A DNA stretch of 64,000 bases from positions 62,001 through 126,000 of IMG/VR virus record IMGVR_UViG_3300029787_005452; one strand, 5' to 3'. The notes under the pieces were generated by a model. The model made no database searches and had not been told where the DNA came from. It saw nothing but the letters and a program-made list of their open reading frames with translations. The position numbers and the translations under genes are program-made. This stretch comes from a virus. Positions 3,936 through 56,671 of the stretch are shown piece by piece; position 1 is the first letter of the stretch; every line of letters begins with the position of its first letter.

Positions 3936-4675
3936 TATACTTTCAATGCCATATCCCAAATGACTAATTGCAATCTTGGACTAAATTTAAAGTTATGTTT
4001 CTTACATAACTCAGCCACCATAGCTGATTTCTGAGTATGTTCCTCTCTACTACCACAACAAGGCATTAACCACACATTTTCAGGATTAACCAGTCCGTTA
4101 TCGATATACTTTTCAAAAAGTTCCTTTTCATCTTCTTTAGAATCGATAACAAATTTAAAACATTCATTATTACTATTATGATGAGCTATAACATCAGGTT
4201 TATATCGACGTTTTTCTGGATCACCATTATTACTCATTTTCGGTGATAAGGTAAAATCTGCATTAAAATCATCATACCACCTATCCATAGGTTTAAGAGT
4301 ACTATTAGATTCAAAATCTATTTTAGGTATAAACCCAAATCTTTCAACAAATGTATCCATCCATAATAATAATCTTTTCTGCTGTAAAAGAGGTTCACCA
4401 CCAGTAATTTTTAATAATGCACCTCTTTTTAACTCTTTATCAAAACCATTTTTTTCATAAAAATCATTAAGCTGGTCAAATGTATATCGATTTTTAATAG
4501 ACCAGGATACAAATGAATCACAACCATGGGGTGAATCTGGAGATGCAAAACCTTGACAAGTTAAATTACACATTGCAAGCCTCATAAAGACTGACGGCCA
4601 ACCAATATATTTACCTTCTCCTTCCACGGTATAAAATACATGATCATCACTTAAAGATAAAATATCGCTACTCAT
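3935..4675 (-). CDS. queE: 7-carboxy-7-deazaguanine synthase (radical SAM)
   Basis: 246 residues. The N-terminal 'YTVEGEGKYIGWPSVFMRLA' leads into the iron-sulphur site with C36, C40 and C52 (spacing C-x3-C-x11-C, an enlarged third interval), and TGGEP (91-95) binds the methionine carboxylate as in other radical-SAM enzymes. QueE turns 6-carboxytetrahydropterin from QueD into CDG, the step before QueC. Its own early promoter lies directly upstream. It heads an operon that continues into the polyamine genes. Confidence 0.88.
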   Translation of the reverse strand: MSSDILSLSDDHVFYTVEGEGKYIGWPSVFMRLAMCNLTCQGFASPDSPHGCDSFVSWSIKNRYTFDQLNDFYEKNGFDKELKRGALLKITGGEPLLQQKRLLLWMDTFVERFGFIPKIDFESNSTLKPMDRWYDDFNADFTLSPKMSNNGDPEKRRYKPDVIAHHNSNNECFKFVIDSKEDEKELFEKYIDNGLVNPENVWLMPCCGSREEHTQKSAMVAELCKKHNFKFSPRLQLVIWDMALKV

Positions 4676-4681
4676 AGTATA

Positions 4682-4710
4682 ATTATAGTATAGTTCCTCA
4701 TTATTATCAA
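4682..4710 (-). promoter_or_regulatory. Early promoter of queE
   Basis: On the minus strand, TTGATA (4710-4705), a 17-bp spacer and TATAAT (4687-4682), then 6 nt to the ATG at 4675. This places the expected transcript start at the start codon. Confidence 0.7.
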
Positions 4711-4775
4711 GATGGAGTATATTATTTATTGATTTTAACCTAATTTTTTTATGTAGTATTTTTTAAATATAGTGT

Positions 4776-4783
4776 TATAAATA
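4776..4783 (+). promoter_or_regulatory. Late-type promoter box of phoH
   Basis: A perfect TATAAATA, 6 nt before the ATG at 4790. No TTGA box was found at a fitting distance. Confidence 0.5.
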
Positions 4784-4789
4784 TTTTAT

Positions 4790-5560
4790 ATGTCAAAAAC
4801 AACCACTACCCGTAAAAGGGTAAAATCAGTGAAGAAACGAGTAAATCTTGTTGATTCGGTCTTAGATAGAACAGTCGAAGCTCCAGTTAATAATTGGGAT
4901 CTTGACTTTAAAATAAATGAAGAGTATAAATTAACTCCTAATCAGGTTGATTTTTTAGTAAAAGCTTTGCAAAAAACGACACGAATGTGTATGATTGACG
5001 GTCCAGCTGGGACAGCTAAGACTTATTTGGCTGTATTAACTGCTTTAAAAATGTTAAATAGAAAACAAATAGATAATATAATTTATATAAGATCTATAGT
5101 TGAAAGTGCTTCTCGGAGTATGGGAGCATTGCCTGGTGAACTAGAAGAAAAATTTGCACCATGGTCAATGCCTTTGATTGATAAACTAGAAGAAATAACA
5201 ACTGCAGGGGCTGGTGGTAATCTAATAAATAAAGGCTATATTAAATGTATACCGGTTAACTTTACAAGAGGTTTAACTTTTAAAAATGCTTGCGTTATTA
5301 TTGATGAAGCTCAAAACATGACTAACCCTGAATTAACTACTATTTTAACACGTTTCGGCGAGGATAGTAAATATCTTGTCGTTGGTGATACTCATCAAGC
5401 TGATATCGGGGTAAAAAGTGGGTTTAAAAACATATTAGAAGCTTTTAATGACCCTATATGTGAAGATGAAGGTATATTGACATTTAAATTTGATGAAGAA
5501 GATATAGTAAGAAGTAAAATTCTAAGATTTATCGTCGAGAGACTCAACACCGTTCAATAA
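4790..5560 (+). CDS. phoH: PhoH-like P-loop ATPase
   Basis: 256 residues. A basic N-terminus of about 20 residues precedes the PhoH core: the Q-motif-like 'LTPNQVDFLVKAL' (48-60), Walker A GPAGTAKT (71-78) and Walker B VIIDEAQN near residue 170, then 'VVGDTHQADIG'. PhoH ATPases are widespread in marine phages and are linked to RNA handling, but their phage role is unproven. The last 39 nt overlap tail-to-tail with the minus-strand gene at 5522-5791. Confidence 0.85.
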   Translation: MSKTTTTRKRVKSVKKRVNLVDSVLDRTVEAPVNNWDLDFKINEEYKLTPNQVDFLVKALQKTTRMCMIDGPAGTAKTYLAVLTALKMLNRKQIDNIIYIRSIVESASRSMGALPGELEEKFAPWSMPLIDKLEEITTAGAGGNLINKGYIKCIPVNFTRGLTFKNACVIIDEAQNMTNPELTTILTRFGEDSKYLVVGDTHQADIGVKSGFKNILEAFNDPICEDEGILTFKFDEEDIVRSKILRFIVERLNTVQ

Positions 5561-5791
5561 TTCCCTCATAGCTTGAGCAAGACCTACTTGTTGAATACTA
5601 ATATTAGGTAAATCTTTTTTTGGTTCCTGTTCTTTAGGTTGAGATACTTCTACCATTTTAGAAAATACATCTTGTTCCAGTTTAACTTGTTGCGGATCAC
5701 GTTCTCTAGTAGAAGGTACACCAGTTGATATACCAGTTTGTATGACAGGAGTTTTGTTTACATTATTCTGATAAACATCCCCTATATCCAT
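5522..5791 (-). CDS. Small hypothetical protein downstream of queD
   Basis: 89 residues from the ATG at 5791, which sits 1 nt after the queD stop. An in-frame start at 5830 would add 13 residues inside queD and is less likely. The sequence is polar with many Gln, Pro and Lys and no clear domain. The C-terminal half (SIQQVGLAQAMRELLNGVES) could form one helix. Its stop overlaps the end of phoH on the other strand. Expressed with queD; function unknown. Confidence 0.5.
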   Translation of the reverse strand: MDIGDVYQNNVNKTPVIQTGISTGVPSTRERDPQQVKLEQDVFSKMVEVSQPKEQEPKKDLPNISIQQVGLAQAMRELLNGVESLDDKS

Positions 5792-5792
5792 T

Positions 5793-6446
5793 TTAATTAC
5801 CCCATGATGTACCGGCAAATGGATTACCAATACCTTTTGATGTTTTATTATATAAAGGTGGTGTTTGTGGGCCCTGATCTGCTATTGGTTCATTTTTAAC
5901 TTCATCATTAATAATAGCTGAAGCTTCTATTTCCTTTTCTTTTAGGTCATGCAAATTTTTTGCAGTATCTTCATTTTGAATATGGCCTTGATCTTTAATA
6001 GTATTCAATAATTCTTCATATATTGCACTATTACCTTCATGCTCCCAAACTTCTACTTTAATAATTCTAACACGATTATTAGTTTGCTCAGTTACAAATT
6101 TATTAGCATTTTCATATACCCATTCTGCAGTTCTTTCAATACCAACACCTTTTTCTGCAATGCGTAAATCAATCATACCCTTTTCAGACATTAACTTAAA
6201 TGTATCTAACTCTGGATCATCAGCAGCTACTACAGTTGTATGGTCATATTGCTTCTCTAAGAGATTTTTAATCTCTTTACAGCCACCGAAATCATAAATC
6301 CAATTTTTATCATCTAATTCTTCTGCTGTAAACCATAACTTACATTGTAATCTATAGCCATGAATTAATTTACAATGACTATCTGCTCTCCACTGACGAA
6401 AGGCTGTACTACCCATCGGTATAATTTTTGTTGATACATATCTCAT
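5793..6446 (-). CDS. queD: QueD-like 6-carboxytetrahydropterin synthase
   Basis: 217 residues. Residues 1-150 are a QueD/PTPS fold: 'ADSHCKLIHGYRLQ' (21-34) with catalytic C25, 'YDHTTVVAADDPEL' (67-80) with D68-H69, and 'VEVWEHEGNSA' with the catalytic Glu. The usual HGH zinc motif reads HGY and the earlier AAH histidine is not evident, so zinc binding may differ. As far as I recall, phage QueD relatives share this. A Pro/Gly-rich tail of about 65 residues follows. It makes CPH4 from dihydroneopterin triphosphate, supplied by FolE2 encoded nearby. Confidence 0.8.
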   Translation of the reverse strand: MRYVSTKIIPMGSTAFRQWRADSHCKLIHGYRLQCKLWFTAEELDDKNWIYDFGGCKEIKNLLEKQYDHTTVVAADDPELDTFKLMSEKGMIDLRIAEKGVGIERTAEWVYENANKFVTEQTNNRVRIIKVEVWEHEGNSAIYEELLNTIKDQGHIQNEDTAKNLHDLKEKEIEASAIINDEVKNEPIADQGPQTPPLYNKTSKGIGNPFAGTSWGN

Positions 6447-6452
6447 ACTATT

Positions 6453-6480
6453 ATTATGATAACAATTTAATGAAAATCAA
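6453..6480 (-). promoter_or_regulatory. Early promoter of queD
   Basis: On the minus strand, TTGATT (6480-6475), a 16-bp spacer and CATAAT (6458-6453), then 6 nt to the ATG at 6446. The -35 box lies in the left arm of the hairpin at 6473-6506. Confidence 0.6.
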
Positions 6481-6506
6481 CTTTTTTAAAAATAATAGTT
6501 GATTTT
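6473..6506 (-). terminator. 10-bp perfect hairpin between two minus-strand genes
   Basis: AAAATCAACT (6473-6482) pairs perfectly with AGTTGATTTT (6497-6506) around a 14-nt A/T loop. It follows the gene at 6558-7643 and could end its transcript, although no U-run follows beyond the stem's own UUUU. It also overlaps the queD promoter. Confidence 0.4.
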
Positions 6507-6557
6507 ATAAAAAATAATTTTAAAATATCTTTAGATAAGAGAGAAGGGACGAGGTAA

Positions 6558-7643
6558 TCATCTATATCTTTTTACGATCTGCTCGAAACTTTCTTCGTTT
6601 GAATCTAATTTAAATTCTTTTTGATATATCTTCAAATCTCTAGCAAATTTTTTCGTCGTTTTTGGTTGTTTAGTTTGCGATCTTACCACTACAGTACCAG
6701 TTTTTCCATCTTTACCAGTTACTTTATGCAGACCACCAGCAGGACCGACAACTATTATACCAGTTTTAAATTTATCTGCTTCTTTATTTAATTTTATTAA
6801 TAAATCTTTAATTGGAATTCCTTCTTGTTTTGACATATTTTTTAAGTCTTGTTTTAAATCTTCATCCGCAACTTTTTTTCTAGTAGCTATTTTAGGTAAA
6901 TAATCTATAAATGATGCTTTATCCCCGTCAGATGCTTTACCATTTTTATTTATAACATCTTTAATACCAGCTAATTCTTTTTTATCATGCTGGGTTGTAC
7001 TAGTAATAGTTAAAGCTAAGGCTTTTAAAACATCTTGGGACAATTCATCACCAAGCATAAATTTTATAAAATTATCTTTTTGACCCTTTTGTCCTAATAA
7101 TGCTTTTTCAGTTTTTGGAGCTTTTTGTTTAATAAGATCGTCTATATCAGTAATAGCTTTATTTCTTATTTTTTCTTCAGCAGCTTTATCAATAGTACCC
7201 TTTTCAATATTAGCTTCTATTTGGTTATAATAATCAATATCTGAAGCTGATACATCTCTTTCTTTACCTTGTTTATATGCATCCCAAACTCTTTTATATC
7301 TAGCATCATTTTCATATCTTTGTTTTCTTACTGGATCTGTAGGTGTATCACCTTTAACACCATACTTTAAATCTTTTTCTGCTTGTTGAGCTTTTAGTTC
7401 TTCTTGTCTTGCTAAAGCTTCTTGTTTTCTGGCTTCAGCACTTCTCATTCTATAACCTCTCGTACCTGGAATAGCTGCAGCAGCTCTACTTAAAAAACCA
7501 CCAACATTAGCTCCCGGTGCTCGAGGCCCTCTTACTTCATTTAAAACTTTTTGAAAATTAGTTTTTTTAAATCTTTCTAATTTAAGAGATCTTTCAGGTA
7601 AAAATTCTTTTTCAACTTTTTCAAATAATTCTTTATCGGTCAT
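6558..7643 (-). CDS. Large Lys/Ala-rich late protein, internal-protein candidate
   Basis: 361 residues, highly charged (Lys, Asp, Gln) and likely helical. The N-terminus MTDKELFEKVEKEFLPE has an L-F-E triple at 6-8, as expected for a T4-type capsid-targeting peptide cut by the prohead protease. There is a Gly/Ala/Arg segment at about 38-66 and a glycine-rich 'IIVVGPAGGLHKVTGKDGKTG' region near 296-316 that looks like a small beta domain. It is read from a late promoter 5 nt before the start. No enzyme motif is seen. Packaging with the DNA is inferred. Confidence 0.6.
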   Translation of the reverse strand: MTDKELFEKVEKEFLPERSLKLERFKKTNFQKVLNEVRGPRAPGANVGGFLSRAAAAIPGTRGYRMRSAEARKQEALARQEELKAQQAEKDLKYGVKGDTPTDPVRKQRYENDARYKRVWDAYKQGKERDVSASDIDYYNQIEANIEKGTIDKAAEEKIRNKAITDIDDLIKQKAPKTEKALLGQKGQKDNFIKFMLGDELSQDVLKALALTITSTTQHDKKELAGIKDVINKNGKASDGDKASFIDYLPKIATRKKVADEDLKQDLKNMSKQEGIPIKDLLIKLNKEADKFKTGIIVVGPAGGLHKVTGKDGKTGTVVVRSQTKQPKTTKKFARDLKIYQKEFKLDSNEESFEQIVKRYR

Positions 7644-7670
7644 TGAAATATTTAATCTATATGGTATAAT
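7643..7670 (+). promoter_or_regulatory. Early promoter of folE2
   Basis: TTGAAA at 7643-7648, 16 bp, and TATAAT at 7665-7670 with an extended TGG upstream, then 6 nt to the ATG at 7677. It overlaps the divergent late promoter of the neighbouring minus-strand gene. Confidence 0.75.
7649..7656 (-). promoter_or_regulatory. Late promoter box for the gene starting at 7643
   Basis: ATTAAATA on the minus strand, then TTTCA (5 nt) and the ATG. Confidence 0.65.
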
Positions 7671-7676
7671 AGATAT

Positions 7677-8729
7677 ATGTCCGAAAAAAATAAAAGTTAT
7701 GAATGGTTAGGTGATGATGTAAGTGAAAGTGAACTTACCGGTGAAAAGGATATTATTGCAAAAGAACTAATGGGAGAAGAATATAGTAAAAGTTACTTTC
7801 CACCTATTAGAGTTTATGATAATAAAGTTAAAGCAGATAGAAAATATATTTCATCATTACCTGACTTACAAAACGGTCCATCAAGTTTAATTCAAGGTGC
7901 TGCGGTGCCTATTCAGCAAGTAGGTATACATAATTTTAAGTTACCTCTTACTTATAAAAAGAGAGACGGTAAGACTATTAATCTTGAAACTAGTGTAACT
8001 GGTAGTGTTAGTTTAGAAGCTCATAAGAAAGGTATTAATATGTCTCGTATTATGAGAAGTTTTTATGATCATAAGGATGATCTATTTAGTATTGATAATA
8101 TTAAAGATGTATTAGAATCATATAGAGAAAATCTTAAATGTTTTGATTCAAGAATTATGCTTAAGATTTCATACCCTATAAAGCAAACAAGTTTACGTAG
8201 TGGTTTAGAAGGTTATCAATATTACGATGTAGTGTTTGAAGGTGATATTACTAAGGATGGTGAGTTTAAGAAGTATATTCACTTTGATTTTGTATATTCA
8301 TCTGCATGCCCTTGTAGTTTTGAATTAAGTGAGCATGCTGAAAAGTATCGTAATCGTGCTACTGTACCTCATAGTCAACGTAGTGTTGCAAGAGTTAGTG
8401 TTAAGTTTGACGATATGTTATGGGTAGAAGATATACAAGAGTTATGTTTAGCTGCTTTGCAAACTGAGACCCAAGTTATGGTTAAGAGAGAAGATGAGCA
8501 AGCATTTGCTGAACTGAATGGTTCTAATCTAAAGTTTGTTGAAGATGCGGTACGTTTAATGTATGAAAAGCTTAGTAGTGAGTCTCGTATTAAAGACTTT
8601 AAGATTGTAGCATCTCATAATGAAAGTCTTCATAGCCATAACGCTATATCAGTTATAGTTAAAGGAGTTAAAGATGGCTTCTCTGCTGGAGTTGCTAGAG
8701 ATGTATTTGAAACTACAGGTTTAAGATAA
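7677..8729 (+). CDS. folE2: GTP cyclohydrolase IB (FolE2/MptA family)
   Basis: 350 residues, longer than typical FolE2 because of a ~60-residue charged N-terminal extension. Core motifs: 'PIQQVGIHNFKLPL' (78-91), 'GSVSLEAHKKGINMSR' (109-124), 'SYPIKQTSLRSGLEG' (165-179) and the metal/active-site SSACPCS (208-214). It opens GTP to dihydroneopterin triphosphate, the first step of preQ0 synthesis. QueD and QueE are encoded close by and QueC at 39537. The extension starts MSEKNKSYEWLGDD and is not part of the known fold. An early promoter lies directly upstream. Confidence 0.9.
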   Translation: MSEKNKSYEWLGDDVSESELTGEKDIIAKELMGEEYSKSYFPPIRVYDNKVKADRKYISSLPDLQNGPSSLIQGAAVPIQQVGIHNFKLPLTYKKRDGKTINLETSVTGSVSLEAHKKGINMSRIMRSFYDHKDDLFSIDNIKDVLESYRENLKCFDSRIMLKISYPIKQTSLRSGLEGYQYYDVVFEGDITKDGEFKKYIHFDFVYSSACPCSFELSEHAEKYRNRATVPHSQRSVARVSVKFDDMLWVEDIQELCLAALQTETQVMVKREDEQAFAELNGSNLKFVEDAVRLMYEKLSSESRIKDFKIVASHNESLHSHNAISVIVKGVKDGFSAGVARDVFETTGLR

Positions 8730-9161: not shown

Positions 9162-9166
9162 ATTAT

Positions 9167-9174
9167 TATTTATG
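9167..9174 (-). promoter_or_regulatory. Late promoter box for the retropepsin-like gene
   Basis: CATAAATA on the minus strand, then ATAAT (5 nt) and the GTG at 9161. The TAA inside the box is the stop codon of the upstream gene. Confidence 0.7.
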
Positions 9175-9358: not shown

Positions 9359-9368
9359 AATAATCTAT

Positions 9369-26626: not shown

Positions 26627-27508
26627 TTATTTCTGAGGTTTAGATAGTGCTGCATAAGCATCTGCCATATCTTTGGTAGCTTTATTATATGCAGGAATAG
26701 CTTGCAAATAGACTTTAGATCGAGCTTTTAAAGCTTTTTTAGCTTGTCTTGCTGAACGATTCATAAGTTTACCTATAGGTCCCACCATAACATCATCTGC
26801 AGTAGCGGCCAAACGCGTAAGACCTTTTTCAGCGTCAGCTAAACTAACATTTAATTTACCTTCTTGATCTTCTATACTACTTCCTCTCATAGAATTAATT
26901 TTGTTATACAGATTTTCAAGCTCTTTAAATTCATCGCTTCCATCATTAACTATTTCACCTTGTTCAATAGGTCTATTATGATATTCGTGAACATCTGCAT
27001 CTTCTTTCTTATATAGAGCTCTTCTTGCTTCAGCATATTCACTGTTATTTCTGAAAGCATTCTTTTTTTGTCTTAATTCAGCTTTTTTTTCAGGGTCATC
27101 TTCTGTCATACTTTGACGAAATAAATCTCTACGTTCTTTTTCCCTTTCAAGATGACCTTCATAATCATACTTGTTTTTAAACTCATCAGTTTCTGCTGCT
27201 CCTGAACGTAATTTTGTAATATCCTGATTAACGTAATCTCCAAACTTAGATAAAAATCTACTTAGTAGTACTGCAGGGGCTTCTGGTGAGTTCTTATTAC
27301 CACCTATACCGTGCATGTTCATAGAATATAATCTTGCAAAACTTCCTGAATCTAAAATATCTTTTCTAGACTTACCTACAAGACTTCTTAAAAAATCTCC
27401 AAATGATTTTCCTGATTTCATTTGTACCATTATTTCATTATCTTCTTTAATAGTAACGCTATCTATTTTTTTCAAGATACTATTAGCTAGCTGGTTAAAC
27501 ATGTCCAT
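26627..27508 (-). CDS. Helical late protein, internal-protein candidate
   Basis: 293 residues, almost all predicted helix, strongly charged, with Arg/Glu-rich segments ('EGHLEREKERRDLFRQSM') and an Ala/Lys-rich end. N-terminus MDMFNQLANSILKKIDSVTI with an I-K-E triple at 20-22. There is no enzyme motif. A late box ending in the previous gene's stop precedes it. A packaged or core structural role is inferred. Confidence 0.6.
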   Translation of the reverse strand: MDMFNQLANSILKKIDSVTIKEDNEIMVQMKSGKSFGDFLRSLVGKSRKDILDSGSFARLYSMNMHGIGGNKNSPEAPAVLLSRFLSKFGDYVNQDITKLRSGAAETDEFKNKYDYEGHLEREKERRDLFRQSMTEDDPEKKAELRQKKNAFRNNSEYAEARRALYKKEDADVHEYHNRPIEQGEIVNDGSDEFKELENLYNKINSMRGSSIEDQEGKLNVSLADAEKGLTRLAATADDVMVGPIGKLMNRSARQAKKALKARSKVYLQAIPAYNKATKDMADAYAALSKPQK

Positions 27509-28077: not shown

Positions 28078-28501
28078 TACCTTTATTATAGTACTGTTCC
28101 AAAAACAACTTTGGTGCTTTACCTATTCTACAGTTTATAATACCATTATAATAATTTTCACTTAATAGGACATCCATTTCGAACTGCATTTTAGCTTCAA
28201 AATATGATAATTCAAATTTACTATTGCAAAATTTTAATATTTTAAATATAAATTTATCTAAACCTAATAAAGATATATCATTATTCAAAGCATCGGACGA
28301 ACCTGTATATGTTTTCCAGTCACTTTCAATAAAATCAATACGTTTACGTTTTTTACCTTTTAAAGGTTTACGTCTAATTTTGCGGACCATTTGTTTTTTA
28401 CCAATATATTTTTTACCACTAATGGTATTAGTAATTTCATATATAAAACCGAAAGAGTCTTTAGGTATCGGTTTACATACTTCCCATATACCTGTATCCA
28501 T
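28067..28501 (-). CDS. GIY-YIG-like endonuclease family protein
   Basis: 144 residues. 'FGFIYEITNTISGKKYIGKK' contains an altered GIY...YIG pair (FIY and YIG), followed by a basic loop 'RKIRRKPLKGKKRKR', 'YTGSSDALNNDI' and 'ELSYFEAKMQFEMDV' with the conserved Glu. This matches a small nuclease-like family frequent in T4-like phages, near Seg-type homing enzymes. It could cut DNA during packaging or act as a free-standing homing nuclease. A late box (AGTAAATA) lies 5 nt before the ATG. Confidence 0.68.
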   Translation of the reverse strand: MDTGIWEVCKPIPKDSFGFIYEITNTISGKKYIGKKQMVRKIRRKPLKGKKRKRIDFIESDWKTYTGSSDALNNDISLLGLDKFIFKILKFCNSKFELSYFEAKMQFEMDVLLSENYYNGIINCRIGKAPKLFLEQYYNKGNDG

Positions 28502-28514: not shown

Positions 28515-28776
28515 TTTTATTTTTTAATTTTCTAGTTTTTTTCTTCTTACCCACTTTACCTTTTCTAGAATACATTGCACCTAAGGCTGTAGGTCTTCTA
28601 AAATCACCAGGTGCATACGCATCAGTACCCGGTGTACCACTTACTGTCGTGCCATAGCCAGTAGCAGCTGCAGAGCCTAGCACCCCTCCACCGACTGTAT
28701 TTTCATCTTCTTCTGGTGGTTTTTTCTTTTTAAGGCTTTTTTTAAATGCTTTTTCAAATAAAGTTGTTTTCTTCAT
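28510..28776 (-). CDS. Gly-rich protein with basic ends, internal-protein candidate
   Basis: 88 residues in three parts: a targeting-like start MKKTTLFEKAFKKSLKKKKP (L-F-E at 6-8), a Gly/Ala/Thr-rich middle ('VGGGVLGSAAATGYGTTVSG'), and a very basic tail (SRKGKVGKKKKTRKLKNKK). The build is like small internal or DNA-binding head proteins. A perfect late box precedes it by 5 nt. Function unknown. Confidence 0.6.
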   Translation of the reverse strand: MKKTTLFEKAFKKSLKKKKPPEEDENTVGGGVLGSAAATGYGTTVSGTPGTDAYAPGDFRRPTALGAMYSRKGKVGKKKKTRKLKNKK

Positions 28777-28791
28777 ATTAGTATTTATAAT
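28764..28791 (+). promoter_or_regulatory. Early promoter of uvsY
   Basis: TTGTTT at 28764-28769, 16 bp, and TATAAT at 28786-28791, then 6 nt to the GTG at 28798. Confidence 0.65.
28782..28789 (-). promoter_or_regulatory. Late promoter box for the gene starting at 28776
   Basis: A perfect TATAAATA on the minus strand, then CTAAT (5 nt) and the ATG. It overlaps the plus-strand -10 box of uvsY. Confidence 0.75.
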
Positions 28792-29193: not shown

Positions 29194-30611
29194 TGAAATT
29201 TGAATTAGCTAAGGAAAAAATTAGATTAATAACAGATGATTTAGACAATATACGAGAACATTTTAGTGTTAAAGATGAAACAGCTCGTTTTCGAATGAGG
29301 GGGAGGGCAAGATTTTATTCTAATCCTCGTATATACGGTATCACACCGACAGGTCTGTTTGAACCAGGTCTTTTTTTTGATATTTTAAGTCATATAAAAC
29401 TAGAATATCCAAATACAGATTATCAAATAGATCAAGATATTTTACCTATAGTCAAACCGACATATAATGAAGAAAGAGCATATGATAATCTAAAATTTCC
29501 ATTAAGAGATTATCAATTAGATTCAGTAAAAGAAGCATTAAAATTTGGAAGAGGTATTATAAAACTAGGTACAGGTGGAGGTAAAACTTTAACGATTGCA
29601 TCATTGTTAATGAGTTTATATTCTAATAACCCTAAAATTAAAATTTTAATATTGGTACCTGACCTAGGACTAGTTAATCAAACTTATAATGATTTTATAG
29701 AATATAATGTATTATTTAAATTTACAAGGTGGACAGGAAAAATAAAACCTGATTTAACTGCTAACTGTATTATAGCTAATAGAGGTATATTACAGAGTCA
29801 GTTTGATAATAATGATTGGATTCAATATATCGACGTTTTAGTGGTTGACGAATGCCATACGATTAAAAAATCTAATAAAGTAAGTAAGATGGTTAATAAA
29901 ATCCATACTTTTAATAAATTTGGATTAACTGGTACTTTACCAGATGATAAACCAGAGCAATGGAATGTTATTGGTAAATTAGGTAAAGTCATATATGATA
30001 AGGATAGCTATCAACTTAGGTTAGAGAGCTATTTAACTAACGTAGACATTAAGGTTATTAACATAGGATATAAAGATAAACCTCTTGTAGTAAGTGGTAG
30101 TAACAACTTTAAAACTGAATTAGATTTTATATATACAAATAATTTTAGAAATAATGTTATTAAGAATATATGTTCAAATTTTAACAATAATTCTCTTATA
30201 TTGGTTAACCATTTAGCTCATGGAGATGCATTATTTGATGACTTATCTCAAATTGAAAATAAAAAAGTTTATTTTGTTAAAGGAGAAGTAGAGGTGGAAG
30301 AAAGAGATAAAATTAAAAAGATAATGGAAACTAATAATGACGTTATCTGTATTGCAATGAGTTCTATTTTTAGTACTGGTATTAATATTAAAAATATACA
30401 TATGATTATGTTTGCCTCTGGTGGTAAAAGTTTTATAAGAACAATACAATCGATTGGTAGGGGTTTGCGACTGCATGAAAGCAAAAATAAACTAATTATT
30501 ATAGATCTTGCTGATAAGTTAAAATACGGTACACGTCATTCTGATAAAAGGAAAGAAATTTATAAATCAGAAAAAATAAATTTTACGTCAACTGATATAG
30601 TTGAAAAATAA
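29193..30611 (+). CDS. uvsW: UvsW-like recombination DNA helicase
   Basis: 472 residues. An N-terminal 100-residue region precedes the SF2 helicase core: 'LRDYQLDSVKEALKFG' (104-119), Walker A GTGGGKT (126-132), DECH (219-222), 'GLTGTLPDD' (motif III) and 'SIGRGLRLHE' (motif VI). UvsW unwinds branched structures and R-loops and helps the late switch in T4. Its start overlaps the uvsY stop (TAATG). All helicase motifs look intact. Confidence 0.88.
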   Translation: MKFELAKEKIRLITDDLDNIREHFSVKDETARFRMRGRARFYSNPRIYGITPTGLFEPGLFFDILSHIKLEYPNTDYQIDQDILPIVKPTYNEERAYDNLKFPLRDYQLDSVKEALKFGRGIIKLGTGGGKTLTIASLLMSLYSNNPKIKILILVPDLGLVNQTYNDFIEYNVLFKFTRWTGKIKPDLTANCIIANRGILQSQFDNNDWIQYIDVLVVDECHTIKKSNKVSKMVNKIHTFNKFGLTGTLPDDKPEQWNVIGKLGKVIYDKDSYQLRLESYLTNVDIKVINIGYKDKPLVVSGSNNFKTELDFIYTNNFRNNVIKNICSNFNNNSLILVNHLAHGDALFDDLSQIENKKVYFVKGEVEVEERDKIKKIMETNNDVICIAMSSIFSTGINIKNIHMIMFASGGKSFIRTIQSIGRGLRLHESKNKLIIIDLADKLKYGTRHSDKRKEIYKSEKINFTSTDIVEK

Positions 30612-30628
30612 GTTTTATATATTATAAT
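30601..30628 (+). promoter_or_regulatory. Early promoter of the gp55-like gene
   Basis: TTGAAA at 30601-30606 (still inside uvsW), 16 bp, and TATAAT at 30623-30628, then 6 nt to the ATG at 30635. Confidence 0.75.
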
Positions 30629-33951: not shown

Positions 33952-35160
33952 ATGCTAATACAAGGTAACAGACCATTCCAACAAGGTAACCCGTTTCAAC
34001 CGATGCAAAATCAACCGATACAGTTTCAGCAGCCGGCACCACCTCCGCAACCAAAAGAAAATGAATTACCGCGATTTTTAAATTATTATGCAGATTATTC
34101 TGGTTGCGGTCATTGGAGAATGATATGGCCTGAACAGATTATGAACGCTCATAGTAAAGCTTGTGTACACGGGACAACAGTGATGAATTTAGATGAGCGA
34201 TATTATGTTCAAACGAAAGGTGTTCGTATTCAAAGACAAGCTACTCCTCAGCAATTACAATTTGTAAAGTGGTTAAGACAATTAGCAGATAAAAATAATT
34301 TTAGATTAATTTATGAAATTGATGATATATGTTTTTCTGAAGATATACCAGACTATAACAAATATAAAACGGCATTTACCGACCCTACTATTAGACAATC
34401 AGCTCAAGAAATGATGTCTATATGCGATGAAATTACTGTTACATGCCCGTTTATGAGAGATTATTATAGAGATAAAACTGGTAATAAAAATGTTACAGTT
34501 GTACCAAATTTTATGCCAAAGTTTTGGATTGACAGATTCTATGATAATTCTAGATCAATGGAAAGCTATGATCGTAATAAAAGAAAACCGAGAATTTTAT
34601 ATGCAGGCTCCGGAGCTCATTTTGATGTTGAACAAAGAGTTAAATTTAAAGATGATTTCCACCATGTTAATGATGTTATAAGAAAAACAGTTGATAAGTT
34701 TCAATGGGTGTTTTTAGGGGCTCACCCTTTACCGTTGATAGATTTAGTTCGGTCTGGTAAAGTAGAATTCCATCCATGGAAAAAACTATATGAATACGGT
34801 AAAGGTTTATATGATTTAAATGTTAATATGTTAGTTGCGCCTTTACAAGATAATATTTTTAACCGTTCGAAATCAGATTTAAAATATATAGAATCTTGTG
34901 CATTAGGATTACCCATTGCTTGTCAAGATATGTGTACATATGAAAACGCTCCTATAAAATTTAAAACCGGAGATGAAATGATTAATCAAATAGAGCACAC
35001 TCTGCAAGATAGAAAACGTTATAAAGCTCTTTGCAGAAAAGGTCGTCAATATGCCGATACAAGGTGGTTGGAAGATGATAAAAATATTGATTGTTATTTA
35101 GAATTATATCAATATGGAGTTAATGACTCAAAAAGGGTTAATTTATCTAGATATAATTAG
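33952..35160 (+). CDS. GT-B glycosyltransferase with Pro/Gln-rich N-terminus
   Basis: 402 residues. A 35-residue low-complexity start rich in Gln, Pro and Phe precedes a GT-B fold: acceptor half 'YYADYSGCGHWRMIWPEQIM', 'LIYEIDDICFSEDIPDY' and 'TVVPNFMPKFWID', then donor half 'ILYAGSGAHFDVE' and 'SDLKYIESCALGLPIACQD' with the E-x7-E-like nucleotide-sugar site. It lies between gp46 and the DNA polymerase. A DNA-modifying or virion glycosylation role is possible. Neither donor nor acceptor can be read from sequence. Confidence 0.8.
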   Translation: MLIQGNRPFQQGNPFQPMQNQPIQFQQPAPPPQPKENELPRFLNYYADYSGCGHWRMIWPEQIMNAHSKACVHGTTVMNLDERYYVQTKGVRIQRQATPQQLQFVKWLRQLADKNNFRLIYEIDDICFSEDIPDYNKYKTAFTDPTIRQSAQEMMSICDEITVTCPFMRDYYRDKTGNKNVTVVPNFMPKFWIDRFYDNSRSMESYDRNKRKPRILYAGSGAHFDVEQRVKFKDDFHHVNDVIRKTVDKFQWVFLGAHPLPLIDLVRSGKVEFHPWKKLYEYGKGLYDLNVNMLVAPLQDNIFNRSKSDLKYIESCALGLPIACQDMCTYENAPIKFKTGDEMINQIEHTLQDRKRYKALCRKGRQYADTRWLEDDKNIDCYLELYQYGVNDSKRVNLSRYN

Positions 35161-35175
35161 GAACTGTTATATAAT
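35148..35175 (+). promoter_or_regulatory. Early promoter of gp43
   Basis: TAGATA at 35148-35153 (a weak -35), 16 bp, and TATAAT at 35170-35175, then 6 nt to the GTG at 35182. Confidence 0.55.
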
Positions 35176-35181: not shown

Positions 35182-37737
35182 GTGAGTTACCGTAATATAT
35201 ATTATGATCCCCGTGAAAGATGTATTAATTTATTTACCTGGGATACTGATGGTAAAAGAATTAAAGTAACTACATCTTATGATCCATATCTTTACGTTGA
35301 AGGTAAAGGTGAATATGAATCTATATTCGGTACTAAGTTAGTTAAAAAGAGTTTTAGAACTCAGTACGATAGATACAAGTATATTAAGGATACAGGAATT
35401 AAAAGGGTGTTTGAAAATCAACCTGCAGTCCAGCAATACTTGATTGATACATTTTGGAAGGTTAATGAAATGTCTGACTTTAGTAAGAATCCTATTAAAG
35501 TAATGTTTTTAGATATTGAGACTTATTCACCAGATGAATTTCCTAATCCTCAAGACCCGACCCATACTTGTAATGTTATAACTTGTTTTGATTCCCTAAA
35601 TCGTCATTATCATACGTTTGGTTTAGGTGAGTTTATTAATAAAGATACTGATGTAACTTATGTTAAATGCTCTTCTGAAAGGGAGTTATTTATGAAATTT
35701 GTTGAGTATGTTGAAAAGGATTACCCTGATATTATGTCAGGTTGGAATAGTGAGTTTTTTGATTTACCGTATATATTAAATAGATGTACTCGTATACTTG
35801 GAGAAGAATGGACTAATAGAATATCACCATCTGGTAATGTTTATAGTAGAACTATACGTGGTCAGTTTGGTCAAGAGCAAACAAGATGGTATGTTGAAGG
35901 TATTTCATTGATTGACTATTTAGACGTATATAAACGTTTCTCAGTAGGTATTAAAGAAAGTTATAAACTTGATGCAATTGGTGAGGCTGAGTTAGGTGAA
36001 AAGAAAGTAGATTTCGGTAATATGAATCTTGCAACTCTGGCTGATACTGATTGGCAAACGTTTGTTGAATATAATATTCAAGACGTTAGACTGCTAACTA
36101 ACTTAGAAGATAAACTAAAGTATACAGAACTAATCAAGATGTTAGCTTATGTAGGTTTAACTACCTTTGAAGCTGCTATGGGTTCTTTGTCAGTAATTAA
36201 TGGTGCAACTGCAGTTATATCAAGAAAGCGTGGTCAGTGTGTACCATCATTTATTAGGAATGAAGATACAGGTAAAAACCCCGGTGCTTTTGTTGGTGAA
36301 CCTTTAAAAGGTTTTCAAGAAAATATTATATCGTTTGATGCTAACTCTCTATATCCTAATGTTATGATATCTCTTAATATGTCTCCGGAGACTAAAGTGG
36401 GTAAGATTGAAGATAAGAATAATAATGAAATAGTTATACGACATGCCAATGGTCAGGTCTTTACTTTAACACATGAAAAGTTTTTAAAGTTCTGTAAAAA
36501 GGAAGAAATAGCTATTAGTAAAGCAAACGTATTATTTACTCAAAGGTTTAAAGGGGTAATGCCTGAAATTTTAGACTACTATTATGATAAGAGAGTTGCA
36601 GTTAAAACTAAACTCGGTAAACTAAAAAGACAATATAGTAAAAATAAAAATAAAGAACTTAAATTTGAGATAGAACAATTAGATGCAAAGCAGTTATGTA
36701 TTAAAGTTTTGATTAATTCTATTTACGGTTACTTTGGTAACAAGCATGCACCTTTTGGTGATGATGATATTGCAGCTTCAATTACATTGACCGGTCAAGC
36801 AGTTATTAAACAATCAAATGAATTACTAAAAAGGTACATAAAGGAAAAAGCTAATATTGAAGATGAAAAAACTCTTAATGATTGTATCATTTATAACGAT
36901 ACTGATAGTAGTTATATTTCAGTTAAACCTCTCGTTAAAGCAGGTTTAACTTTTACTGATGAAAATGGTAAATTAACTCAAGCATTTCATGATGAAGTAC
37001 AGAATATTGAAGATTTCTTAAATGATGAAATTAAAGTATGGGGTGGTAAAAACTTAAATTCTAAAGACTGTAGATTTATCTTTAAACGTGAGGTTATAGC
37101 TGATACCGGTATATTCTTACAGAAAAAACGTTACGTGATGCATATATTAGATGATGAAGGTATACCAATGGATAAGTATAAGTATACTGGGGTTGAGGTT
37201 GTTAGAAGTACAATGCCTGATGCTATTAAACCTCATGTAAAAGGTATAATTGAGACGATGCTATCAACTCAAAATATAGCTAAAACTAATGCTGTACTTG
37301 ATAAAACGTATAAAATATTTAAAGACTTACCAGTTGAAGATATTACGTTTGTATCAGGGTTAAAAGGTTATGAAAAATATGCAGGTCAATGTGATGGTTG
37401 GAAGACTGCAAAGGGTATGCCTATCCATGTTAAAGCTGCTTACTACCATAATTTGTTACTTGAAAAGTTTGATATAGAAAAAAAATATGAAACTATTAGT
37501 TCAGGTGATAAGGTTAGATACTTTTATTTACAACAACCAAACCCGTATAATTTACCAAGTTTAGCATACAAGTATTATTACCCAGAAGAGTTTAAAAAGA
37601 TATTTCACGTTGATTATGATAAAATGTTTGAAAAAAATTTATATGCAGTTATAGAAAGATTTTATGAAAACGTTAAATGGTCTATTCAAAAGCCAGGTAA
37701 TGCAGTTCAAACTAATTTATTTGATTTATTAAGTTGA
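35182..37737 (+). CDS. 43: DNA polymerase, family B (gp43)
   Basis: 851 residues. Exonuclease motifs: 'VMFLDIETYSPDEF' (DxE near 111-113), 'MSGWNSEFFDLPYILNR', 'YNIQDVRLL'. Polymerase motifs: A 'FDANSLYPNVMISL' (near 386), B 'KVLINSIYGYFGN' (near 511), C 'YNDTDSSYIS' (near 573). It replicates the phage genome with gp45 as clamp. It starts at GTG; an ATG 4 nt earlier is out of frame. No intein or split is seen. Confidence 0.95.
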   Translation: MSYRNIYYDPRERCINLFTWDTDGKRIKVTTSYDPYLYVEGKGEYESIFGTKLVKKSFRTQYDRYKYIKDTGIKRVFENQPAVQQYLIDTFWKVNEMSDFSKNPIKVMFLDIETYSPDEFPNPQDPTHTCNVITCFDSLNRHYHTFGLGEFINKDTDVTYVKCSSERELFMKFVEYVEKDYPDIMSGWNSEFFDLPYILNRCTRILGEEWTNRISPSGNVYSRTIRGQFGQEQTRWYVEGISLIDYLDVYKRFSVGIKESYKLDAIGEAELGEKKVDFGNMNLATLADTDWQTFVEYNIQDVRLLTNLEDKLKYTELIKMLAYVGLTTFEAAMGSLSVINGATAVISRKRGQCVPSFIRNEDTGKNPGAFVGEPLKGFQENIISFDANSLYPNVMISLNMSPETKVGKIEDKNNNEIVIRHANGQVFTLTHEKFLKFCKKEEIAISKANVLFTQRFKGVMPEILDYYYDKRVAVKTKLGKLKRQYSKNKNKELKFEIEQLDAKQLCIKVLINSIYGYFGNKHAPFGDDDIAASITLTGQAVIKQSNELLKRYIKEKANIEDEKTLNDCIIYNDTDSSYISVKPLVKAGLTFTDENGKLTQAFHDEVQNIEDFLNDEIKVWGGKNLNSKDCRFIFKREVIADTGIFLQKKRYVMHILDDEGIPMDKYKYTGVEVVRSTMPDAIKPHVKGIIETMLSTQNIAKTNAVLDKTYKIFKDLPVEDITFVSGLKGYEKYAGQCDGWKTAKGMPIHVKAAYYHNLLLEKFDIEKKYETISSGDKVRYFYLQQPNPYNLPSLAYKYYYPEEFKKIFHVDYDKMFEKNLYAVIERFYENVKWSIQKPGNAVQTNLFDLLS

Positions 37738-37761
37738 TTTATATAAAATAGATAATAAAAT
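37734..37761 (+). promoter_or_regulatory. Early promoter downstream of gp43
   Basis: TTGATT at 37734-37739, 16 bp, and TAAAAT at 37756-37761, then 6 nt to the ATG at 37768. The -35 box overlaps the gp43 stop. Confidence 0.65.
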
Positions 37762-38206: not shown

Positions 38207-38431
38207 ATGACTCCTCAAGAAATATTTGATTATAAATTAGGATGGAAATCTTATGGTTTTTCCATCCCATTTCATTCTGATTGGGAAATGGAATATACGG
38301 ATTTTTGTAAAGAAAATTTTAATAAATGGCAATGGGATATATACAGATGGACAAATGTTTATGAGCATACAATGTTGTTTGAAAAAATAAAAGATGCTGA
38401 TAAGTTTAAGGAATTCATTGATAAACGTTAA
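38207..38431 (+). CDS. Small conserved phage protein upstream of uvsX
   Basis: 74 residues from the ATG at 38207. The in-frame ATG at 38189 lies inside the hairpin stem and is unlikely. 'MTPQEIFDYKLGWKSYGFSI' then 'FHSDWEMEYTDFCKENFNKW' and 'TNVYEHTMLFEKIKDADKF' match a small Trp/His-rich family that I recall from cyanophage recombination regions. No known role. Confidence 0.6.
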   Translation: MTPQEIFDYKLGWKSYGFSIPFHSDWEMEYTDFCKENFNKWQWDIYRWTNVYEHTMLFEKIKDADKFKEFIDKR

Positions 38432-38445
38432 ACATATACTATAAT
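38418..38445 (+). promoter_or_regulatory. Early promoter of uvsX
   Basis: TTGATA at 38418-38423, 16 bp, and TATAAT at 38440-38445, then 7 nt to the ATG at 38453. Confidence 0.72.
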
Positions 38446-42907: not shown

Positions 42908-42915
42908 TATTTATT
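42908..42915 (-). promoter_or_regulatory. Late promoter box for the EF-hand-like protein
   Basis: AATAAATA on the minus strand, then ATAAT (5 nt) and the ATG at 42902. Confidence 0.7.
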
Positions 42916-42941
42916 GATTTTTTTTAATTTTATACTATAAT
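42914..42941 (+). promoter_or_regulatory. Early promoter of the amidotransferase gene
   Basis: TTGATT at 42914-42919, 16 bp, and TATAAT at 42936-42941, then 8 nt to the ATG at 42950. It lies back to back with the late box of the minus-strand neighbour. Confidence 0.65.
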
Positions 42942-43621: not shown

Positions 43622-44094
43622 ATATAAATTACGTTACAATTAATGAATTAACTGAAATAGATAAGTTAAGATTTATAAAATTTATCTATGATAATACTAA
43701 TTCTTTTATTTTAAATACTTTTGGACATACTTGGTCAGGTAGAGACTGGTGGTCAAAGTATCCGATTGAAGTATGTGTTGATGATGAAGGTAAAGTACTA
43801 GGTTTACATGCATATACAGTGAATGATAAATTTGAAGATACTTTAAAGACTTATTATATAGTAACTTCTAAAGGTAGTAGAGGTAAAGGTATTGCTAAAA
43901 TATTAATAAAAAATGCTATCTATAAAAATAAAGATAAAATAAATTTTTATTATGTTAATTCAGATACAAAAAGCGAAGGGGCTATTTTTTATAAAAAATG
44001 GTTAGGTGAAAATTTTACTCTTGAAGATAATGATTTTAATTCCCAAGATATAATCTTTAAGGAACCTATTTATAATATAATAGATGAAGTATAG
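43618..44094 (+). CDS. GNAT-like N-acetyltransferase
   Basis: 158 residues. 'YYIVTSKGSRGKGIAKILIK' contains the acetyl-CoA loop (R-G-K-G-I-A) and 'VNSDTKSEGAIFYKKWLGEN' the later motif B. The acetyl acceptor is unknown; a modified base, sugar or host protein are all possible. It overlaps the amidotransferase stop (ATGA), so the two may act together. Confidence 0.72.
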   Translation: MNINYVTINELTEIDKLRFIKFIYDNTNSFILNTFGHTWSGRDWWSKYPIEVCVDDEGKVLGLHAYTVNDKFEDTLKTYYIVTSKGSRGKGIAKILIKNAIYKNKDKINFYYVNSDTKSEGAIFYKKWLGENFTLEDNDFNSQDIIFKEPIYNIIDEV

Positions 44095-47595: not shown

Positions 47596-48220
47596 AATAC
47601 AAAAAATAATTTATAATAATTTTTTAGAAGTTAGTAAAAAGATCAATAACAAACCAGTAAAGTATAGAAAGAATTTTGATAATTTTCCGGATGAAAATTA
47701 TATTATTATCAATAAATTAAGTAATTTTTTCTATAAATTTAAACATTTAAAAATAAAAGATTTTTTTGAAGCTCCATATTTTGTATATGATGAAAATTAT
47801 TTTGATTTAAAATTTTATTTAGGACCTAAAGCAATAAAAGCTTATACTCTATACAATGATAAGTTTCTTTTAAATAATCCAGATGATGATAAAACATTAT
47901 CTAAAATGCAAGAATCGATAAAATTTATTTACAATTACTGTAAAGATAAAAATATTAATATTAAAGATTACCTTACAATAAAAGAAGGTGAATATAACGT
48001 TTTTCTTAAACATATTAAAAATAGAGATATTATAATCTTTATATTATTTGCTTTTAGTAATTTTGAAAAGGTAATTGGTTCTATAGATACCGAGATAAAA
48101 ACTATGTATAGTTCTAATTTTTCTCGTTTAAATTATATTAGAACAAAATACTATTCTAGCTCTAAAGCAAAGAAAATAATTAATAATTTTAGAATATTCG
48201 TTGATAATCAAAAAGTATAG
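47588..48220 (+). CDS. gp59-like helicase loader
   Basis: 210 residues from the ATG at 47588, overlapping the previous gene by 8 nt. All-helical and basic. The segment 'EYNVFLKHIKNRDIIIFILF' with 'AFSNFEKVIGSID' and the ending 'KYYSSSKAKKIINNFRIF' follow the layout of T4 gp59 (217 residues), which loads gp41 on gp32-covered DNA. The synteny (directly before gp32) supports it. Identity is low, so the call is tentative. Confidence 0.55.
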   Translation: MTEIQKIIYNNFLEVSKKINNKPVKYRKNFDNFPDENYIIINKLSNFFYKFKHLKIKDFFEAPYFVYDENYFDLKFYLGPKAIKAYTLYNDKFLLNNPDDDKTLSKMQESIKFIYNYCKDKNINIKDYLTIKEGEYNVFLKHIKNRDIIIFILFAFSNFEKVIGSIDTEIKTMYSSNFSRLNYIRTKYYSSSKAKKIINNFRIFVDNQKV

Positions 48221-48228
48221 TCTATAAT
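48201..48228 (+). promoter_or_regulatory. Early promoter of gp32
   Basis: TTGATA at 48201-48206, 16 bp, and TATAAT at 48223-48228, then 6 nt to the ATG at 48235. Confidence 0.75.
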
Positions 48229-50430: not shown

Positions 50431-50431
50431 T

Positions 50432-50785: not shown

Positions 50786-50789
50786 TATT

Positions 50790-51122: not shown

Positions 51123-51128
51123 ATATAT

Positions 51129-54490: not shown

Positions 54491-55346
54491 TTTAGTACAT
54501 CGAGTGTATTGGGTTGCAAATAACATTAAAAATGTTTCTGAAAACTACCATGTTTATATGTTTCTCAATAGTGTTAAGAGTTATGTGGAAATGTACCAAC
54601 CAGATAAAGTCATATGCGTGTGGGATGAAAAACCTGATTATAGACCCAATAAACGTAAGGAACTTTTAGAAGAATATAAAGGAAATCGTGACCCTGAGTA
54701 TGGTAAAGAAGTACATGGTAAGAATGAAATAATAAAAGAGATGCTTAATACAATAGGTATACCATCAATATTCCCTAGATCATATGAAGCTGATGATGTT
54801 ATCAAGATTGTTAACGATGCATATGATAAAATGAGCACAACTAAATTTTATTTAACTAAAAAATTATTCAGACATGTCATTGTTACTGTAGATAAAGACT
54901 TATGCCAGTTAATTTCTAGTAAAGTTTCGGTATACGACCCTATAAGAAAGGTGGAAATTAATAAAGAAAACTTTAATGAAATATTAAAATATAATAAAAA
55001 AGATTTTATTAAAGTAAAAGCGTTAACTGGTGATAAAAGTGATAATATTCCCGGCTTAAAAGGTTTTGGTAAAGTAAAAATAGATAAGTTCCTTAACGGT
55101 GAAGTAGTTTTAACAGAAGAAGAAAACGTTATATATAATAGAAATTTAGATTTAGTCACGTTAACTAATGATAAAGATGAAAAGGAGTATGTTATGAATC
55201 AATTATCAGAAATTAAAAATGAAACTGACTATGAACAGTTTAAAAAATTAAGTAAAGATTATAATTTAAGTCAAATTGTTAAAAATGATACTAAATGGTA
55301 TACTACATTTTTCCAGAAAAATAGATTATTAGAGTTACTATCTTAA
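54462..55346 (+). CDS. rnh: RNase H / 5'-3' exonuclease (T4 Rnh-like)
   Basis: 294 residues, near T4 Rnh (305). 'LLTIDGNNLVHRVYWVANNI' (first Asp), 'VICVWDEKPDYRPNKRKELL' then 'EEYKGNR', 'SYEADDVIKI' (E-x-D-D), 'IVTVDKDLCQLIS' and 'ALTGDKSDNIPGLKGFGKVK' are the FEN-1-type metal and helix-hairpin sites. It removes RNA primers from lagging strands. All acid residues seem present. Confidence 0.87.
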   Translation: MKLLTIDGNNLVHRVYWVANNIKNVSENYHVYMFLNSVKSYVEMYQPDKVICVWDEKPDYRPNKRKELLEEYKGNRDPEYGKEVHGKNEIIKEMLNTIGIPSIFPRSYEADDVIKIVNDAYDKMSTTKFYLTKKLFRHVIVTVDKDLCQLISSKVSVYDPIRKVEINKENFNEILKYNKKDFIKVKALTGDKSDNIPGLKGFGKVKIDKFLNGEVVLTEEENVIYNRNLDLVTLTNDKDEKEYVMNQLSEIKNETDYEQFKKLSKDYNLSQIVKNDTKWYTTFFQKNRLLELLS

Positions 55347-55349
55347 ATA
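55342..55349 (+). promoter_or_regulatory. Late promoter box for the gene starting at 55355
   Basis: CTTAAATA, then TTAAT (5 nt) and the ATG at 55355. The RNase H stop codon TAA is inside the box. Confidence 0.65.
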
Positions 55350-55354
55350 TTAAT

Positions 55355-55600
55355 ATGGAAGATCAATTTATTAATCCTCAGCAAATACGTTCCCCATATA
55401 CCGGGGAAACAGTTAGACCAGTTTTTAATACCTACGTTAATAATGGTAAAACGTATGAACAAGCAGTTATGTCTGACCCAGTTACAGGTCATATAATTAA
55501 AAAAGGTTTAGTATCTATTAAAGATTCTAAAACTGGTGAAGTAATACAAGATTATAATTCAGCACTATCTCAAAGTAATACTACTCAAAGTAGAGGTTAG
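55355..55600 (+). CDS. Small late protein between rnh and gp61
   Basis: 81 residues, polar, Gly/Asn/Gln-rich, beta-like: 'IRSPYTGETVRPVFNTYVNN', 'VTGHIIKKGLVSIKDSKTGE'. The 'SPYTG' and 'GE' elements recall small head- or capsid-associated proteins, but this is only an impression. It has its own late box, unlike its replication neighbours. Function unknown. Confidence 0.55.
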   Translation: MEDQFINPQQIRSPYTGETVRPVFNTYVNNGKTYEQAVMSDPVTGHIIKKGLVSIKDSKTGEVIQDYNSALSQSNTTQSRG

Positions 55601-55602
55601 GC

Positions 55603-55630
55603 TTGAAATATAGTATATTGCATTTATAAT
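55603..55630 (+). promoter_or_regulatory. Early promoter of primase
   Basis: TTGAAA at 55603-55608, 16 bp, and TATAAT at 55625-55630, then 6 nt to the GTG at 55637. Confidence 0.75.
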
Positions 55631-55636
55631 TATAAT

Positions 55637-56671
55637 GTGATAATTATACCAGAGCAGTATGTTGTAAACGTTTTGTATGAGAATGTCTATAAAATCTCAT
55701 ATAATAAATATACAAAAACGTATAATGGTTGCTGCCCTATCTGTAAAGAAGGTGGTTCATGGGGTAAGAAAAAGCGATTTTATTATATACCGAATAAAGA
55801 GTTGGCTTATTGTCATAACTGCGGTTATAGTAAAAAGGCTCTTACCTTTATAACTGAGGTAACTAATAAACCGTTACATACTATTGTTAATGATATAAAA
55901 GGTTTTGATGTTGAAATCTTACCTACCGAAGAACCAAAGGAAGTTAAAAAAGTTATAGATAAAAGTTTACCTGAAGATTGTATTAATTTATCTGATATTA
56001 GTCAAATAGAATACTATAAAGATAATACTACAGTAAAACTAGCTTTACAGTTAATTAAAGATAGAAAACTAGATAAAGGTGTTAATAAACCTAAAACGTT
56101 TTATTTATCTTTAAAAGACCCGGTGCATAAGAATAGATTAATATTACCATTCTACGATGAAAATGATGATATTATATTTTATCAATCAAGAGGGTTAACT
56201 AAAAAGGATTTGTTTGAAAGACCAAAATATCTTAGTAAGGTAGGTGCAGAAAGAAGCTTATACGGTATGCAAAATATAAATTCAGATTTAGATAACGTGT
56301 TTATATTTGAAGGACCTATTGACAGTTACTTTGTTGAAAATGGTTTAGCTACTTGTGGTATTACTGAAAAGAGTAATAAGATGTTTACAACATTACAATT
56401 ACAACAGATCAATAAACTAAACTTATATGAAAAGGTTTATGTATTAGATAACCAGTACTGTGATAAAGCTGCTTTAAGTAAAAGTATTATATTAGCTGAT
56501 AATAATGAAAAGGTTTTTATATGGCCTAAAGAGTTAAAGCGTTTTAAAGACTTTAACGATATATGCGTAGCTGGTAATAAAGACAAAATAAAACCTGAAT
56601 TTATATTAAAAAATACTCATTCAGGTCTTAAAGCTAAATTATTATTAACTGATATTAAAAATAATAGTTAA
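55637..56671 (+). CDS. 61: DNA primase gp61
   Basis: 344 residues, near T4 gp61 (342). Zinc ribbon C33-P-I-C36 and C59-H-N-C62, then a TOPRIM core with 'VFIFEGPIDSYFV' (Glu near 225) and 'YVLDNQYCDKAALSKSIILA' (D-x-Q in place of D-x-D). It makes primers together with helicase gp41. It starts at GTG; an ATG two bases upstream is out of frame and followed by TGA. The last codons overlap the minus-strand gene at 56668. Confidence 0.88.
   Translation: MIIIPEQYVVNVLYENVYKISYNKYTKTYNGCCPICKEGGSWGKKKRFYYIPNKELAYCHNCGYSKKALTFITEVTNKPLHTIVNDIKGFDVEILPTEEPKEVKKVIDKSLPEDCINLSDISQIEYYKDNTTVKLALQLIKDRKLDKGVNKPKTFYLSLKDPVHKNRLILPFYDENDDIIFYQSRGLTKKDLFERPKYLSKVGAERSLYGMQNINSDLDNVFIFEGPIDSYFVENGLATCGITEKSNKMFTTLQLQQINKLNLYEKVYVLDNQYCDKAALSKSIILADNNEKVFIWPKELKRFKDFNDICVAGNKDKIKPEFILKNTHSGLKAKLLLTDIKNNS

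What the first reader, a model, noticed from the sequence alone, without database searches (positions are those of the whole stretch)
4673..55639. Early promoters also end on the start codon
A second class has TTGAWW - 16 or 17 bp - TATAAT/TAAAAT/CATAAT - 6 nt - start codon: queE 4675 (17 bp), queD 6446, folE2 7677, uvsY 28798, gp55 30635, gp43 35182 (weak -35), 37768, gp32 48235, 51129, gp61 55637. uvsX (38453) has 7 nt and the amidotransferase (42950) has 8 nt. The -10 to +1 distance of sigma-70 promoters puts the transcript start at the start codon. Both promoter classes therefore give leaderless messages by different spacing (6 nt from the -10 box, 5 nt from the late box). It also provides a temporal map: nucleotide, replication and preQ0 genes early, virion and internal genes late.
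Basis: partly seen in the sequence, partly recalled or inferred. Interest (0 to 1): 0.78.

Follow-up and report, generated by a model that had tools for sequence, protein, structure and literature searches.

The report
Phage promoters flush with start codons

Summary
The window is part of a 185-kb virus record of an uncultured T4-like phage. Genome-wide, 28 genes have TTGA-N18..20-TATAAT and 13 have GGAAC-N4..7-TATAAT (boxes within one mismatch), mostly 6 nt (5-8) before ATG/GTG. A further 69-74 have the late box TAAATA, mostly 5-6 nt before ATG. TATAAT sits at exactly 6 nt in 20 of 226 starts against 0.59 per position elsewhere. T is favoured at -1 (78% and 70% against 35%), as expected if the ATG is the transcription start. 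With T4 and sigma-70 geometry both spacings put +1 on the start codon. Shine-Dalgarno sequences are at background (8% against 6%; T4 57%). Genes without a promoter mostly overlap or abut an upstream gene. The pattern is conserved in five relatives while spacer sequence is lost. The early/late map holds with exceptions. Transcription starts and the host are unproven. Leaderless architecture is known in bacteria; I found no report of it for a whole T4-like programme.

The parts
4682..4710 (-). queE promoter: TTGATA, 17 bp, TATAAT, 6 nt to ATG 4675; also GGAAC at 4693-4697 (middle-like class)
   Evidence: ortholog upstreams
6453..6480 (-). queD promoter: TTGATT, 16 bp, CATAAT, 6 nt to ATG 6446
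   Evidence: gene by Pfam PTPS
7643..7670 (+). folE2 promoter: TTGAAA, 16 bp, TATAAT, 6 nt to ATG 7677
   Evidence: Pfam GCHY-1
28085..28100 (-).
   Evidence: conserved in G003 and G007
28764..28791 (+). uvsY promoter: TTGTTT, 16 bp, TATAAT, 6 nt to GTG 28798
   Evidence: PHROG
30601..30628 (+). gp55 (late sigma) promoter: TTGAAA, 16 bp, TATAAT, 6 nt to ATG 30635
   Evidence: PHROG
35160..35175 (+). gp43 promoter, middle-like: GGAAC (35160-35164), 5 bp, TATAAT (35170-35175), 6 nt to GTG 35182; no TTGA
   Evidence: GGAAC and TATAAT kept in nearly all of about 45 relatives listed
37734..37761 (+). promoter of ORF 37768: TTGATT, 16 bp, TAAAAT, 6 nt
38418..38445 (+). uvsX promoter: TTGATA, 16 bp, TATAAT, 7 nt to ATG 38453
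   Evidence: PHROG
42914..42941 (+). amidotransferase promoter: TTGATT, 16 bp, TATAAT, 8 nt to ATG 42950
44061..44076 (+).
48201..48228 (+). gp32 promoter: TTGATA, 16 bp, TATAAT, 6 nt to ATG 48235
   Evidence: only TTGA, TATAAT and ATG kept at 58-60% protein identity
51095..51122 (+). promoter of RmlD/epimerase-like ORF 51129: TTGATT, 16 bp, TAAAAT, 6 nt
   Evidence: Pfam
55603..55630 (+). gp61 primase promoter: TTGAAA, 16 bp, TATAAT, 6 nt to GTG 55637
   Evidence: PHROG
   Evidence: TTGA and TAAAAT kept in five relatives
58517..58532 (+).

Best explanation
This is the promoter system of an uncultured T4-like phage in which host-type sigma-70 promoters are placed so that RNA polymerase starts at, or within one or two bases of, the A or G of the start codon, giving leaderless messages. 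Shown by sequence: fixed spacing from the -10 and late boxes to the start codon, T at -1, no Shine-Dalgarno signal anywhere, and promoter-less genes that mostly overlap or abut an upstream gene. Inferred: the transcription start at the start codon; leaderless initiation by host ribosomes for first genes, with translational coupling for distal genes; early use of the TTGA class by host sigma-70, later use of the GGAAC class by host sigma-70 plus an unidentified factor that replaces the -35 contact, and late use of TAAATA boxes by phage gp55. Why the lineage does this is not known; the simplest reading is a host that itself does not rely on Shine-Dalgarno.
For: Spacing peaks far above background. 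T at -1 in 78% (TATAAT class) and 70% (late class) against 35% in other genes of this record; pooled over six genomes 66% against 39%, p 2e-15. Published geometry: sigma-70 -10 is -12 to -7 (PMC2988021) and the T4 late box is 8 bp with its first base at -13 (PMC2988020), so 6 nt and 5 nt gaps put +1 on the start codon. Shine-Dalgarno-like motifs at 8% against 6% at control positions, and 1-9% in relatives, against 57% in T4 and 50% in HTVC008M. 101 of 128 starts not abutting an upstream gene have a promoter against 14 of 98 abutting ones, p 3e-23; T4 shows nothing (p 0.58). Orthologs keep promoter class and usually alignment from residue 1 while the spacer changes. In IMG/VR, AGGAACT-N3-ATATAAT-N6-ATG has 196 matches in 119 stretches, 179 opening an ORF of at least 40 codons (91% against 21% of all ATGs there).
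Against: No RNA 5'-end data. In the more distant relatives (gp43 57-60% identical) the TATAAT gap is spread over 5-7 nt, and 8 nt for gp43, so some leaders of 1-2 nt are likely. 27 starts of this record that do not abut an upstream gene lack a recognised promoter, and a few promoters lie 14-112 nt from a start. The host is unknown, so its translation mode could not be tested.
Confidence: 0.85

Rival explanations
1. The boxes are real promoters but the true translation starts are further downstream, so messages have ordinary leaders.
For: Start codons were called by coding potential only.
Against: Orthologs align from residue 1 for most genes; no Shine-Dalgarno signal at the called starts, though internal starts were not scanned for one; GTG starts are conserved for gp43 in close relatives and for uvsY and gp61 in both close relatives, G003 and G007.
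Confidence: 0.04
2. AT-rich sequence before start codons (29.5% GC) creates TATAAT and TAAATA by chance or through a translation-related AT preference.
For: The genome is very AT-rich and has hundreds of TATAAT hexamers.
Against: Dinucleotide shuffles give 0.97 against 29; TTGA pairs at the right distance; GGAAC, which is not AT-rich, sits at 17 nt; P-SSM2 and T4, also AT-rich, show no such peak by called starts.
Confidence: 0.02
3. Transcription starts 1-3 nt upstream of the start codon, so messages have tiny leaders rather than none.
For: RNA polymerase chooses among several positions (general knowledge); gaps of 7-8 nt occur (uvsX, amidotransferase, distant gp43 genes).
Against: The modal gap is 6 nt in this record and T is favoured specifically at -1.
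Confidence: 0.09

Closest known systems
Leaderless genes of bacteria with a Pribnow box about 12 bp upstream of the start (Zheng 2011, PMC3160421; Deinococcus-Thermus, PMC12340547)
   Same: -10 element placed so that +1 coincides with the start codon; no Shine-Dalgarno
   Different: Those are cellular genomes using one housekeeping promoter type; here it is a lytic phage with three promoter classes, one likely read by a phage sigma factor, with a clear -35 in the early class
T4 early, middle and late promoters (PMC2988021, PMC2988020)
   Same: sigma-70-type early promoters, a class in which a phage-specific element replaces the -35, and a gp55-type late box; gp55 homolog present
   Different: T4 uses leaders with Shine-Dalgarno; the T4 MotA box (TGCTT) lies 12 bp from the -10, whereas GGAAC here lies mostly 5 bp from it
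Pelagimyophages HTVC008M and Mosig
   Same: Ten genes in 100 kb of HTVC008M and four in the Mosig stretch have TAAATA exactly 5 nt before ATG
   Different: They use Shine-Dalgarno for many other genes and show no early or GGAAC class at start codons
Leaderless lambda cI message
   Same: a phage gene translated without a leader (general knowledge; PMC3160421 notes lambda)
   Different: A single gene, not the whole programme

Membership tests
Leaderless gene architecture (Zheng-type) | -10 box at the distance that places +1 on the start codon | tested here: met
Leaderless gene architecture (Zheng-type) | no Shine-Dalgarno upstream | tested here: met
Leaderless gene architecture (Zheng-type) | RNA 5' end at the start codon | not testable with these tools
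   no transcript data
T4-like phage transcription scheme | gp55 late sigma and TATAAATA-type late boxes | tested here: met
   PHROG late sigma; late-box peak
T4-like phage transcription scheme | sigma-70 early promoters | tested here: met
T4-like phage transcription scheme | MotA box 12 bp from the -10 in middle promoters | tested here: not met
   the middle-like class has GGAAC mostly 5 bp from the -10 instead; a MotA-box pattern was not searched for separately
T4-like phage transcription scheme | MotA and AsiA proteins | tested here: inconclusive
   no Pfam match in three records, but no positive control rang

The most novel reading that the evidence does not exclude
The whole lytic programme of this phage lineage is free of Shine-Dalgarno, with three temporal promoter classes each firing at the start codon, so that phage messages could be translated by a route the host's own Shine-Dalgarno-led messages do not use. 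If the host does use Shine-Dalgarno, this would be a translational takeover strategy; the GGAAC class would be a new sigma-70 co-activated middle promoter.
Probability: 0.15. Interest if true: 0.85.

Novelty: new variant of a known kind. Interest (0 to 1): 0.72.

Why it matters
Leaderless messages are usually treated as a minor or ancestral mode in bacteria. A T4-like lineage found in many virus contigs that appears to depend on them throughout would be a natural system for leaderless initiation, would let promoters and temporal class be read directly from uncultured genomes, and would fix start-codon annotation for many virus contigs. It also supplies a candidate middle-promoter element in a T4-like lineage, where Melnitz had no identifiable middle promoters (PMC9004378), and late boxes in pelagimyophages, where a published search for middle and late promoters failed (PMC7029224).

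Tried and rejected
Host: a scan of GTDB genomes with a gp43 alignment gave two distant hits (27-30% identity) on contigs binned as archaea, not informative. WhiB, bS21, S1 and IF3 families were not found in the phage records searched. No close isolate: best gp43 match 32%. A single-cell marine virus (AG-345-L05) and phage C48C1 do not share the architecture in the stretches read. I considered that the pattern was AT-richness or wrong start calls and rejected both on shuffles, a caller-free count and ortholog alignments. Ten paper searches gave no report of a leaderless T4-like programme; the library holds open-licence papers only.

Full report
What was checked. The window is bases 62001-126000 of a 185,197-base virus record. 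I read the rest of the record in stretches, called 226 genes by coding potential and start-codon type, without using promoters, and measured where promoter-like boxes lie relative to the starts. All twelve sites of the finding are present. Ten have a 6-nt gap, uvsX 7 and the amidotransferase 8.

More than chance. TATAAT ends 6 nt before the start in 20 genes against 0.59 per position elsewhere; TTGA peaks at the matching distance; TAAATA is at 5 nt in 43 genes against 0.35. Sites matching TTGA plus TATAAT at 9 or 10 of 10 positions end 5-8 nt before a start in 29 genes, against 0.97 in shuffles. Counting only hexamers followed by an open frame, with no gene calls, gives the same peaks. T4, P-SSM2 and the pelagiphage HTVC008M do not show the TATAAT peak.

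Three classes, not two. Genome-wide I classify 28 starts as TTGA class, 13 as GGAAC class and 69 (74 with weaker boxes) as late class. GGAAC sits mostly 5 bp upstream of the -10; in 11 of these 13 genes the TTGA position matches 3 or fewer of 4 bases, and only queE and the gene starting at record position 42131 have a full TTGA, so the element appears to take the place of the -35. T4 middle promoters also replace the -35 with a phage element, but the MotA box lies 12 bp from the -10 (PMC2988021), so this is a different element. Calling it a middle promoter is inference from that analogy and from the genes it serves.

Why leaderless. The sigma-70 -10 element spans -12 to -7 and the T4 late box is 8 bp with its first base at -13; gaps of 6 and 5 nt therefore put +1 on the start codon. 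T at -1, a pyrimidine before a starting purine as is usual for bacterial starts (general knowledge), is found in 78% of TATAAT-class and 70% of late-class starts against 35% of the rest. Shine-Dalgarno motifs are at background in this record and five relatives, but at 57% in T4 and 50% in HTVC008M. Of 98 genes that overlap or lie within 5 nt of an upstream gene, 84 have no promoter; of 128 others, 101 have one. This fits leaderless initiation of first genes and coupling for distal ones. The transcription start itself is inferred.

Conservation. Between this record and relatives, class is kept in most orthologs and TTGA-class genes almost never become late-class. For gp32 and uvsX at 58-64% protein identity, little beyond TTGA, TATAAT and the start survives in the upstream region.

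Temporal map. Among annotated genes, 0 of 19 TATAAT-class and 12 of 17 late-class genes are virion genes (Fisher p 5e-6; annotations). The exceptions in the late class are NrdA, PhoH, a radical SAM gene, a homing-endonuclease-like gene and a DHH gene; three of these five have a 6- or 7-nt gap rather than 5. Genes were chosen for annotation by class and size, not at random, and I sorted the annotations by hand.

Relation to known systems. Placing a -10 box to give leaderless messages is known in bacteria (PMC3160421, PMC12340547), and late boxes 5 nt from ATG also occur in the pelagiphages HTVC008M and Mosig, which otherwise use Shine-Dalgarno. I found no report of a whole T4-like programme built this way. 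The host remains unknown, so whether this mirrors a leaderless host or is a phage strategy is open.

Noticed in passing
late-class genes across the 185-kb record, e.g. window 26627-27508(-): In 14 of 38 late-class genes with a same-strand upstream neighbour, the gap places the neighbour's stop codon on the first TAA of the TAAATA box (also 10 of 41, 6 of 29 and 8 of 20 in three relatives).
   Followed up: partly
gp43 upstream in L057, L058, L060, L076, L081, L088, L089, L041: The -10 region of several gp43 promoters lies in a long inverted repeat (for example CTATCTTATTATAATAAGATAG) whose arms differ between relatives but stay complementary; it could be an operator or an RNA element on read-through messages.
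   Followed up: partly
HTVC008M (L122, L123) and Mosig (L250): Late boxes 5 nt before ATG in ten HTVC008M genes and four in the Mosig stretch; a published middle and late promoter search in pelagimyophages was unsuccessful.
   Followed up: partly
L181, L188, L147: Metagenomic virus contigs with 7 to 12 GGAAC-type promoters in about 12 kb, nearly all before a short ORF.
   Followed up: no
window 3935-8729: queE, queD and folE2 homologs clustered, suggesting phage-encoded preQ0 synthesis.
   Followed up: no
start codons of the 185-kb record: GTG is more frequent at TATAAT-class starts (7 of 41) than at promoter-less starts (1 of 111).
   Followed up: no
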